A DNA stretch of 64,000 bases. Origin: an uncultured Anaerolineae bacterium. GTDB taxonomy: Bacteria > Chloroflexota > Anaerolineae > JACIWP01. Position 1 is the first letter of the stretch; each line of letters begins with the position of its first letter. The notes below the pieces were generated by a model. It was given only the letters and a program-made list of their open reading frames with translations. It did no database searches and was not told where the DNA came from. The position numbers and the translations under genes were made by a program. Location: assembly GCA_938049385.1 (NCBI GenBank), contig CALIBQ010000003.1:21072-85071 (forward strand), in the 5' to 3' direction. Below are positions 61,847-63,310 of this stretch, piece by piece.

Positions 61847-63310
61847 TCAAAGGCCGGCGATCTCCAGGGGCTCCAGCCGGCCGCCCGACAAATCCATCGT
61901 GCAGATGCGGTGGTGGTTGGTATCCGCAATGTACAGCCGGCCGCCGGCACTGCTGATGCCGCCCGGCTCGTATAAACCTTCCTCCTGTGTCGGGCGAAGG
62001 GTCTCCACACGCCGCGTGCCGAGGTCCACTAGCCGCACTGTATTGTTGTAGGTGTCCGCGACGTACAGCCGGCCGGCGTGCCAGGCGATGCCCTGCGGAT
62101 GCTGGAGCCGCGCCTCCTCGCCGACGCCGTCTTGGTCGCCGAAATCGAACAGTCCGGTGCCAGCCAGCGTCCCCACGCGGCCGGATTCTGGGTCGAGCCA
62201 GCGCACAGCGCTGGACTCCGCATCCACGAAATACAGCGTTTGGCCGCCTCCGATGATGGCGGATGGCTGAGCCAGGGCGGCGGACTCCGCCGGCCCATCC
62301 ACAAGGCCCTCCGCCCCGCTCCCCGCAAAGGGATGCAGCTCTTCCGTAGCAAGCTCCAGCCGCCATATCTGATGGGCGCCGGCCATGGCGATAAAGAGCG
62401 CGCCGGCGTGCACAGTCAGGCCCCAAGGTGAGTTGAGAGCGGTGCGCCGCGCCGGCCCACCGCCGGCGCGAAAGCCAGCCTGTTCGCCAGTGCCGGCGAT
62501 AGTGTGCACCGTTCGAGCGGACAGGTCCACGCGCCGCACAGCGTGATTGTCCGTATCGGCGACAAAGAGCTGATCCCCCGCCCGCGCCAAGCCGTGAGGC
62601 CGGCGAAAGGCCGCGCGATGAAAATCGCCGTCCCGCAGGCCGGCCTCGCCACTGCCGATGACGGCCAGCACCTCGGCCCGCCGGCCGTCCTCCTCGACCC
62701 TTGCCCAGATGACCCGGTGATGGTTGGTATCGGCGATGAACAGATGTCCATCCTCCGCCGCTAGCATGCCGGCGGGGAAGGCCAGCGCGCGATCAGGTCC
62801 CATCTGGCGTTCCGGCCGCAGGGGCAGGGGCCGGCGCTCCAATGGGCCGGCTTCCTCCGCCCGACGCAGGACGTTTTCCAGGATGGGCGTTAGAAAATCG
62901 GCGCTGACCTCGCCGGGACGTGCCCCGACCTGCCGGCCGAACGGGTCAATCAACACAATAGTAGGCCAAGCGCGCACTGCGTGCGACTGCCAGATGCGGA
63001 ACTGGCGATCATTGACCACCGGATGATCTATTTCGAGCCGCATGACCGCCTGCCGAATGTTGGCAGTAATCCGTTCGGCGGGGAACTTGCCGGCGTGCAC
63101 CCCGATGACCAGCAGGGCATCCCCAAAACGGCACTCCAGCTCCCGCAACTGCGGGAGGATGTGCATGCAGTTGATTCAGCCGTAGGTCCAGAAGTCGAGC
63201 AGGACCAGCCGGCCGCGCAGGTCTTCCTGGGTCAGCGAGCGCTCGACGTTCAACCAATCTAGGCCGGCGGGAAAGGCCGGCGTGCGGGTCGGCGGCTCCA
63301 AGGGTGCCAT
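61847..63310 (-). CDS. Thioredoxin-like/NHL-repeat protein, probable selenoprotein (in-frame TGA at 63176-63178)
   Basis: 487 residues if TGA is read as selenocysteine at position 45. Residues 1-44 are in frame from an ATG at 63310 (GAGG 9 nt upstream) and match the family up to LLDFWTYG. The next codon is TGA, then INCMHILPQLRELE. Relatives read WTYxCINCxHxLP, so TGA replaces the first Cys of CxxC, giving UINC (U45, C48). A thioredoxin-like domain runs to about 150; a six-bladed NHL propeller follows (LFIADTNHHRVI, LFVADTDNHAVRRVD, LYVADTYNNTVRLVD). A start at the later ATG (63166) would drop the active site. Likely an NHLRC2-like redox protein. Confidence 0.82.
63140..63178 (-). promoter_or_regulatory. 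Candidate bacterial SECIS element
   Basis: Counting from the TGA at 63178-63176 on the minus strand, 18 nt follow, then CTCCCGC (63157-63151), loop AGTT (63150-63147) and GCGGGAG (63146-63140): a 7-bp perfect stem. The loop is 25 nt after the TGA and has G at its second base. Bacterial SECIS models ask for a loop 16-37 nt from the TGA with a G in its first two bases. Confidence 0.75.

What the first reader, a model, noticed from the sequence alone, without database searches (positions are those of the whole stretch)
61847..63310. Unannotated selenoprotein: thioredoxin-like/NHL protein with TGA in place of the CxxC cysteine
Seen: an ATG at 63310 with a ribosome site opens a frame that runs DFWTYG-TGA-INCMHILPQ and continues to 61847. 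On both sides of the TGA the sequence matches one protein family, whose members have Cys exactly at the TGA (CINC). Known: selenocysteine commonly replaces a redox Cys in UxxC thioredoxin-fold proteins. Inference: the gene encodes a 487-residue selenoprotein that standard gene finders would start at 63166, losing the active site. I do not know of this family being described with selenocysteine in this lineage.
Basis: partly seen in the sequence, partly recalled or inferred. Interest (0 to 1): 0.95.

Follow-up and report, generated by a model that had tools for sequence, protein, structure and literature searches.

The report
Selenium version of NHLRC2-like redox protein
A Chloroflexota bacterium carries a gene, cut short in a large protein database, whose in-frame TGA is predicted to be read as selenocysteine at the active site of a likely redox enzyme related to human NHLRC2; of 130 compared genes, this one included, 70 have the TGA and 60 have a cysteine codon there, which marks the probable catalytic residue of a family whose function is still unknown.

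Summary
On the minus strand, ATG 63310 to TGA 61847 is one frame of 487 residues with one in-frame TGA (63178-63176) at the first Cys of the CxxC of a thioredoxin/NHL-propeller protein (NHLRC2/SOQ1 fold, Foldseek TM 0.90-0.92). In 130 homologous genes, this one included, the codon at that column is TGA in 70, TGC in 44, TGT in 16 and nothing else; the aligned regions hold no other stop. A 7-bp hairpin with loop AGUU, 25 nt after the TGA, fits the published bacterial SECIS rules checked and marks Sec forms, not Cys forms (91% against 42% pairing). The genome has selA, selB, selD (itself a Sec form) and tRNA-Sec (UCA). selA is over its cut-off in 68 of 70 genomes with the TGA form. The database copy of this gene is the 439-aa truncation. 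Full-length Sec forms occur in several phyla. I found no such family in a 2026 inventory of 119 prokaryotic selenoprotein families, though an entry named only 'Redoxin family protein' could overlap. Selenium insertion and enzymatic function are inferred, not shown. Likely role: a selenol-thiol oxidoreductase that docks its substrate at the propeller.

The parts
61847..63310 (-). CDS of the predicted selenoprotein, 487 aa with Sec45; terminator TGA at 61849-61847
   Evidence: translation with TGA=U; 130 homologous genes aligned; mostly third-position changes on both sides of the TGA within the genus
63176..63178 (-). in-frame TGA, predicted selenocysteine codon (residue 45, first position of CxxC)
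   Evidence: column is TGA 70 / TGC 44 / TGT 16 of 130; coordinates
63167..63169 (-). codon of Cys48, predicted resolving Cys of UINC
   Evidence: Cys in 130 of 130
63140..63157 (-). predicted bacterial SECIS hairpin: stem 63157-63151 / 63146-63140 (7 bp), loop AGUU 63150-63147, 25 nt after the TGA
   Evidence: model rules read
63317..63320 (-). GAGG, possible ribosome-binding site 6 nt before ATG 63310
   Evidence: sequence; the exact letters are not conserved in the two same-genus genomes
62936..63214 (-). thioredoxin-like domain (Thioredoxin_8, residues 33-125)
   Evidence: Pfam PF13905, E 4.2e-10
61871..62785 (-). NHL-repeat beta-propeller (about residues 176-480)
   Evidence: Pfam PF01436, E 1.2e-28; AlphaFold model and Foldseek
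61847..63166 (-). truncated 439-aa reading given by standard gene finding (start at Met49)
   Evidence: database protein P0002, 439 aa
63341..63961 (-). upstream neighbour, ACT-domain protein, 30 nt before the ATG
   Evidence: Pfam ACT_7; same order in the two same-genus loci
61232..61834 (-). downstream neighbour, nitroreductase-family protein
   Evidence: Pfam PF00881; same order in L007 and L008

Best explanation
The gene at 61847-63310 encodes a thioredoxin/NHL-propeller protein of the NHLRC2/SOQ1 fold whose in-frame TGA (63178-63176) is predicted to be decoded as selenocysteine at the first position of its CxxC. How it likely works: the SelB of this bacterium would bind the AGUU hairpin 25 nt behind the UGA and deliver Sec-tRNA; otherwise translation would stop after 44 residues. 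The 487-residue product would use Sec45 as the attacking nucleophile and Cys48 as the resolving partner. It would reduce (or exchange) a disulfide or other oxidised group of a client held in the cleft between the thioredoxin domain and the propeller. Shown: the frame, the TGA/Cys column, the hairpin conservation, the machinery genes. Inferred: selenium insertion (about 0.97), thiol/selenol oxidoreductase chemistry (about 0.75), docking at the propeller cleft (about 0.6). The client is unknown.
For: Column 45 is TGA 70, TGC 44, TGT 16 in 130 homologous genes, the window's included (every hit with E <= 3e-35 whose span covers it); total in-frame stops in the aligned regions: 70 TGA, no TAA or TAG. 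In 21 weaker hits, mostly thioredoxin-only kin, the column is again only TGA 6, TGC 11, TGT 4. SECIS: pairing of a 6-bp stem at loop position 26 is 91% in 111 distinct Sec sequences and 42% in 60 Cys ones, next best register 74%; loop AGTT in 98 of 111; Leu codon TTG in 104 of 111 against 12 of 60; changes on both sides that keep the pair at 4 of 7 stem pairs; window hairpin -18.7 kcal/mol against -9.9 +/- 3.0 for synonymous recodings, 13 of 5000 as low. Machinery: tRNA-Sec UCA, selB 372.9 bits, selA 595.4 bits, selD 363 bits with its own in-frame TGA in ASCAGUAGK. selA over the cut-off in 68 of 70 Sec-form genomes; the two misses are 86% and 77% complete. The 44 codons before the TGA show mostly third-position changes (12 changed codons synonymous, 4 not, against G001). 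TGA is the ordinary stop of this gene and of 4 of 7 neighbours examined, so it is not reassigned. Structure: mean pLDDT 90.9; 6gc1 TM 0.90, 7djk TM 0.92.
Against: No protein-level evidence. Sec insertion by this SelB was not tested. 20 of 111 distinct Sec sequences keep fewer than 6 of 7 stem pairs. Over the 70 Sec loci the mean energy z against synonymous recodings is only -1.32, with 24 below -2 (Cys: -0.48, 5 of 60). Two Sec-form genomes lack a found selA, and most Cys-form genomes also have one (50 of 60 at E <= 1e-60, 49 over the cut-off), so selA presence discriminates only weakly (Fisher p 0.012). The model is unsure just at the active site (mean pLDDT 63 over residues 41-50). The human NHLRC2 thioredoxin domain was reported inactive in a classical insulin assay (PMC6107167, passage), which speaks against a general disulfide reductase. 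No widely shared neighbour gene points to a client.
Confidence: 0.9

Rival explanations
1. The TGA is a real stop and the gene makes a 439-residue NHL protein from Met49 (63166), with a dead 44-codon leader.
For: Mechanical ORF listing and the database give this product.
Against: It loses the first part of the thioredoxin domain and the first residue of the CxxC; no Shine-Dalgarno-like letters before 63166 (by eye); the leader evolves like coding sequence; 70 genes keep TGA at one codon, with a conserved hairpin behind it.
Confidence: 0.02
2. Pseudogene: the TGA is a nonsense mutation in a decaying gene.
For: A stop in an otherwise intact frame.
Against: Three genomes of the genus share it, with no other stop in the frame; 70 genomes share it, with no TAA, TAG or second stop in the aligned regions.
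Confidence: 0.01
3. UGA is reassigned genome-wide, or read through as another residue (Trp, Arg, Cys) without selenium.
For: Read-through alone would also give a full-length protein.
Against: This gene and 4 of 7 neighbours end in TGA; 22 of 70 Sec-form genes meet TGA as the next in-frame stop (24 TAG, 14 TAA, 10 run off); Sec machinery and a SECIS are present; the alternates are only Cys codons.
Confidence: 0.02
4. The Sec protein is a peroxidase-like or repair enzyme (selenol attacks a peroxide or a non-disulfide group) and not a disulfide reductase.
For: AhpC-TSA match to the domain (E 1.7e-4, below the curated cut-off) and AhpC-TSA and Redoxin matches to relative L114; insulin assay negative for NHLRC2; the LCNP modification linked to SOQ1 was not reversed by DTT (PMC6107167 and PMC10173003).
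Against: The motif is UxxC of the thioredoxin type with the second Cys in 130 of 130; the best match of that domain is Thioredoxin_8.
Confidence: 0.25

Closest known systems
NHLRC2 (human, PDB 6gc1)
   Same: Thioredoxin-like domain plus six-bladed NHL propeller; Cys at the position of Sec45; second Cys (PMC6107167)
   Different: CCINC in human against GUINC here; the human protein has an extra C-terminal domain; no Sec
SOQ1 lumenal region (Arabidopsis, PDB 7djj/7djk)
   Same: Same two domains, 7djj E 6.8e-99 with best stretch 7-438; TM 0.92 with 7djk, a mutated form with Ser for these Cys
   Different: Plant SOQ1 has an extra HAD domain and membrane helix (PMC6107167 section 17) and uses Cys
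Bacterial NHL-domain thioredoxin family proteins with Cys
   Same: About 41-55% identical, same two domains
   Different: TGC/TGT instead of TGA and mostly no SECIS-like hairpin (5 of 60 keep 6 of 7 pairs)
Known UxxC thioredoxin-fold selenoproteins ('Thioredoxin', 'Redoxin family protein', 'Thiol-disulfide isomerase-like protein' in PMC13188914 Table 1)
   Same: Sec replaces the first Cys of CxxC
   Different: None of the 119 listed families is named with an NHL propeller; the 'Redoxin family protein' accession could not be opened
Thioredoxin-only UINC selenoprotein genes seen here (20 'short' loci)
   Same: Same FWT-x-G-U-INC motif and similar hairpin
   Different: 106-114 residues after the Sec in 19 of 20 and 13 in one, no propeller

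Membership tests
Bacterial selenoproteins (UGA/Sec) | in-frame TGA aligned with Cys of homologues | tested here: met
   70 TGA / 60 Cys codons of 130
Bacterial selenoproteins (UGA/Sec) | TGA kept in relatives, no other stop types | tested here: met
   0 TAA, 0 TAG, 0 extra TGA in the aligned regions of 130
Bacterial selenoproteins (UGA/Sec) | bSECIS: 3-9 nt loop, 4-16 bp stem, G in the first two loop bases, 16-37 nt spacing (rules from PMC13188914) | tested here: met
   loop AGUU, 7 bp, 25 nt; conserved over relatives; the model's energy limit was cut off in the passage and not checked
Bacterial selenoproteins (UGA/Sec) | selA, selB, selC, selD in the genome | tested here: met
Bacterial selenoproteins (UGA/Sec) | selenium found in the protein | not testable with these tools
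   needs 75Se labelling or mass spectrometry
NHLRC2/SOQ1 family | Trx8-type domain followed by NHL propeller | tested here: met
NHLRC2/SOQ1 family | CC(I/V)NC motif | tested here: inconclusive
   window has G-U-I-N-C: U at the second Cys, final Cys met, leading Cys absent; leading Cys present in 60 of 70 Sec and 21 of 60 Cys genes
NHLRC2/SOQ1 family | biological role (NHLRC2 essential; SOQ1 suppresses quenching) | not testable with these tools
   no functional data for bacterial members; the NHLRC2 paper reports finding none
NCBIfam named families, selenoproteins among them (release 20.0) | score above a curated cut-off | tested here: not met
   best 38.6 bits against cut-off 170; none reached for relative L114 either

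The most novel reading that the evidence does not exclude
This is a member of an undescribed, widespread bacterial selenoprotein family: the selenocysteine form of NHLRC2/SOQ1. It is frequent in Chloroflexota and also present in Gemmatimonadota, Actinomycetota, Methylomirabilota/Rokubacteria, Acidobacteriota and others. Evolution repeatedly swapped Sec and Cys at this one residue, which identifies the catalytic nucleophile of a family that includes an essential human disease protein of unknown chemistry.
Probability: 0.75. Interest if true: 0.75.

Novelty: new variant of a known kind. Interest (0 to 1): 0.64.

Why it matters
Sec/Cys exchange at one column is strong natural evidence that the residue is catalytic (principle recalled). 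Human NHLRC2 (mutated in FINCA disease) and plant SOQ1 share this fold, yet their chemistry is unresolved; the insulin assay was negative. A Sec-bearing bacterial relative gives a reactive handle (75Se, selenol alkylation, client trapping) for testing whether the family is a redox enzyme and on what. It also points to a systematic annotation error: of 10 database proteins opened (the window's own included), 8 begin one to four residues after the Sec position and so lack it, and two of these are named 'alkyl hydroperoxide reductase' (except for the window's own, their DNA was not seen).

Tried and rejected
Rfam at gathering thresholds found nothing in the window, and ARAGORN found no tRNA in the window; the Sec genes lie on other contigs. 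The Rfam tRNA-Sec model also put two other own-genome loci over its cut-off, but ARAGORN calls these tRNA-Ser; the same model is over its cut-off in 5 of 14 control genomes, so I rely on the UCA anticodon call. Neighbourhood: clustering neighbour ORFs of 43 Sec-form loci (8 kb or less each) gave no common partner. The commonest, a protein that resembles the thioredoxin-domain DUF255/YyaL type (name recalled from its sequence, not tested), is downstream in 9 of 43; 5 of the 9 records are named Dehalococcoidia and 4 Chloroflexi. Further thioredoxin hits of the genus with a reported TGA (G001:C7 and G002:C43) have WCPPC active sites, so those TGA are not active-site Sec. Weaker hits with TAA or two TGA (G308, G703, G285) looked like decay at first; read out, the extra stops are the ends of thioredoxin-only genes 108 residues after the column. 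Pseudogene, reassignment and internal-start readings were considered and rejected (rivals). Prior-art check: the 'Redoxin family protein' entry of two reviews could overlap. I had no tool that opens its accessions; the term search listed those two reviews and two others not opened, whose abstracts do not concern it. Pfam Redoxin matches both the three thioredoxin-only proteins tested and L114, so I could not settle it.

Full report
Observation. On the minus strand of the window, ATG 63310 opens a frame that runs to TGA 61849-61847 with one in-frame TGA at 63178-63176. Under table 11 the open frame is 61847-63166, 439 aa. The sequence on both sides of the TGA belongs to one protein: phmmer aligns residues 7-438 to SOQ1 (7djj, E 6.8e-99) and 9-476 to NHLRC2 (6gc1, E 1.9e-90) as best stretches. 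Pfam gives Thioredoxin_8 (33-125) and NHL repeats. An AlphaFold model from 44 sequences, with Cys in place of Sec, has mean pLDDT 90.9, but only 63 over residues 41-50, which hold the active site. It superposes on 6gc1 (NHLRC2, TM 0.90) and on 7djk (a mutated SOQ1 form, TM 0.92).

Host. The window lies in a 3.37-Mb genome, 98% complete. Three loci of genomes reported as same class carry the same DNA as public records named Thermoflexales, Anaerolineae and Ardenticatenia, and five same-phylum loci match records named Chloroflexi, with one more each named Chloroflexota, Thermomicrobiaceae and 'Bacterium HR28' (Thermoflexales placed in Chloroflexota). The host is therefore a Chloroflexota bacterium; that its GTDB class is Anaerolineae is recalled, not looked up.

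Machinery. The same genome has a tRNA-Sec with anticodon UCA (69.2 bits, ARAGORN agrees), selB (372.9 bits), selA (595.4 bits) and selD (363 bits), all over the curated cut-offs. In 14 control genomes the models are over their cut-offs in 5 (tRNA-Sec), 2 (selB), 1 (selA) and 2 (selD). selD contains its own TGA in ASCAGUAGK, so this genome has at least one further Sec gene of a well-known kind.

Conservation of the codon. I searched 396 genomes of the class and 400 of the phylum with the read-through protein; only the best 3-4 first-look candidates per genome were scored. Each hit with E <= 3e-35 whose span covers residue 45 was taken: 130 loci, one per genome, the window's gene included (60 already fetched, 70 fetched). 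Hits that miss the column (for example G199, G268, G582, G601, G739) were left out. Column 45 is TGA in 70, TGC in 44, TGT in 16. The fourth residue of the motif is Cys in all 130. Inside the aligned regions the only stops are those 70 TGA. By genome, 13 of 396 in the class draw and 58 of 400 in the phylum draw have the TGA form (counted; the window's genome is in both). Below the cut-off I also read 21 weaker hits: TGA 6, TGC 11, TGT 4 at the column; other stops there, TAA included, are the ends of thioredoxin-only genes; about ten more weak hits were not read. In the genus, codons before the TGA differ mostly at third positions (12 synonymous and 4 nonsynonymous changed codons of 44 against G001; 11 and 4 against G002), so the leader looks like translated sequence under selection.

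Hairpin. The 70 Sec genes plus 48 further Sec-form loci of the pattern scan (10 of the scan loci run off their stretch, so a few of the 48 may be thioredoxin-only) gave 111 distinct Sec sequences, compared with 60 distinct Cys ones. In the Sec set a stem at nt 19-25/30-36 after the TGA with loop at 26-29 is paired at 85-96% per position; a 6-bp stem there averages 91% (Cys 42%; best other register 74%). The loop is AGTT in 98 of 111 (Cys 5 of 60). The Leu codon in the loop is TTG in 104 of 111 (Cys 12 of 60). Of 111, 91 keep at least 6 of 7 pairs, against 5 of 60. Four of seven pairs show changes on both sides that keep the pair. Mean folding energy is -13.5 kcal/mol in 78 Sec and -6.1 in 24 Cys genes. 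For the window, energy is -18.7 against -9.9 +/- 3.0 for 5000 synonymous recodings, 13 as low. Over the 70 Sec loci the mean z of energy is only -1.32, with 24 of 70 below -2 (Cys -0.48, 5 of 60), while 44 of 70 exceed recodings at p <= 0.05 on pairs (Cys 1 of 60). The window hairpin CUCCCGC-AGUU-GCGGGAG meets each rule of the published bSECIS model that I checked (loop size, stem length, G position, spacing; passage of PMC13188914; its energy limit was cut from the passage and not checked). No dedicated SECIS program was run.

Genome test. selA is over its cut-off in 68 of 70 Sec-form genomes (37 of 37 that are at least 90% complete and at most 5% contaminated). Among 60 Cys-form genomes 50 match at E <= 1e-60, 49 over the cut-off (36 of 43 good ones match). 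Fisher p is 0.012 and 0.013, computed with 50 of 60 and 36 of 43. The direction is as expected, but the test is weak and the genomes are related.

Spread. In 79 of 80 the frame after the TGA is open for at least 18 codons or to the edge; in L159 it closes after 13. After removal of 7 stretches identical at the motif to ones already held, 73 remain: 43 with more than 300 residues after the Sec (NHL form), 20 short (thioredoxin only), 10 running off the stretch. The 43 are Chloroflexota 29, Thermomicrobiota 1, Gemmatimonadota 3, Actinomycetota 3, Methylomirabilota 2, Rokubacteria 1, Acidobacteriota 1, Pseudomonadota 1, unnamed 2 (labels follow the NCBI names of mostly metagenome-assembled records). 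The scan selects TGA by design and is not used for the TGA/Cys count.

Tree. A quick LG+G4 tree of 132 proteins (86 Sec, 46 Cys, dereplicated from 168) needs at least 9 Sec/Cys changes, 4 of them forced by starred branches. The window's genus falls with Actinomycetota and Gemmatimonadota Sec forms (SH-aLRT 96), which suggests transfer between phyla. Two long branches meet elsewhere in the tree, and there is no bootstrap, so I take only the minimum count from it.

Annotation. The five closest database clusters (P0002, the window's own, to P0006) are all 439 aa. Of 10 database proteins opened, 8 begin one to four residues after the Sec position, among them two NCBI proteins named 'alkyl hydroperoxide reductase' (P0077, P0098); the other two (P0014, P0027) are full-length with CCINC.

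Mechanism. Sec in the first position of a thioredoxin CxxC acts in known selenoproteins as the nucleophile (established knowledge, recalled). NHLRC2 has its motif in the cleft between the two domains, and conserved residues line that cleft (PMC6107167: passages, section 17). I therefore infer a selenol oxidoreductase acting on a client bound at the propeller. Against a simple disulfide reductase: NHLRC2 was inactive with insulin and the SOQ1-dependent modification of LCNP is not reversed by DTT (PMC10173003 passages). Sec would make a peroxidase-like or repair activity plausible too; this is the strongest rival for function.

Literature. The listings (11 papers; 1; 25 of 73 shown; 4; 15 of 40 shown; 1; 4) show no paper whose title or abstract start describes a Sec form of NHLRC2, SOQ1 or an NHL-propeller thioredoxin; most listed papers were not opened. 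Table 1 of PMC13188914 (119 families/subfamilies by its own count, read in section 7, parts 1-2 of 3) lists none under such a name; 'NHL', 'SOQ1', 'propeller' and 'Chloroflex' do not occur in its main text. Term searches for 'NHL' in the main texts of PMC9312934, PMC12013277, PMC2398784, PMC1794560, PMC1088965 and PMC5029168 gave no occurrence; of these I saw passages only. Supplements were not available. The library lacks most subscription papers. The entry 'Redoxin family protein, UxxC' in both reviews could include members of this family seen as short reads. NCBIfam 20.0 has no model that reaches its cut-off.

Noticed in passing
L113, L118, L119, L124, L137, L139, L143, L146, L148 and others (20 'short' loci); also L305-L309: A second group with the same FWT-x-G-UINC motif and a similar hairpin but only a thioredoxin-like domain, in Chloroflexota, Rokubacteria, Methylomirabilota, Binatota, Armatimonadota, Planctomycetota and Pseudomonadota records. 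No NCBIfam model reaches its cut-off for the three tested.
   Followed up: partly
L053 1501-2436 (G000:C46:4855-5790): The host's selD is itself of the Sec type (ASCAGUAGK) with a strong hairpin behind the TGA; its predicted loop is not AGUU.
   Followed up: partly
L054 (G000:C3:28326-29096), window about 7255-8025, minus strand: A SelD-like protein below the family cut-off (97.4 bits against 125) lies in the window; probably another enzyme of the same fold, not examined.
   Followed up: no
L115, L122, L126, L132, L149, L153, L158, L166, L172: Downstream of the Sec-NHL gene in 9 of 43 loci (5 records named Dehalococcoidia, 4 Chloroflexi) sits a protein resembling the thioredoxin-domain DUF255/YyaL type; a possible functional partner in that lineage (name recalled).
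   Followed up: partly
L165: A Pseudomonadota MAG contig has a Sec-NHL frame with 532 residues before and 595 after the Sec, the longest upstream part of the 80; possibly fused to another domain.
   Followed up: no
P0077, P0098, P0026, P0029, P0101: Public proteins that begin one to four residues after the Sec position, so they lack it; two are named 'alkyl hydroperoxide reductase'. Their DNA was not seen.
   Followed up: partly
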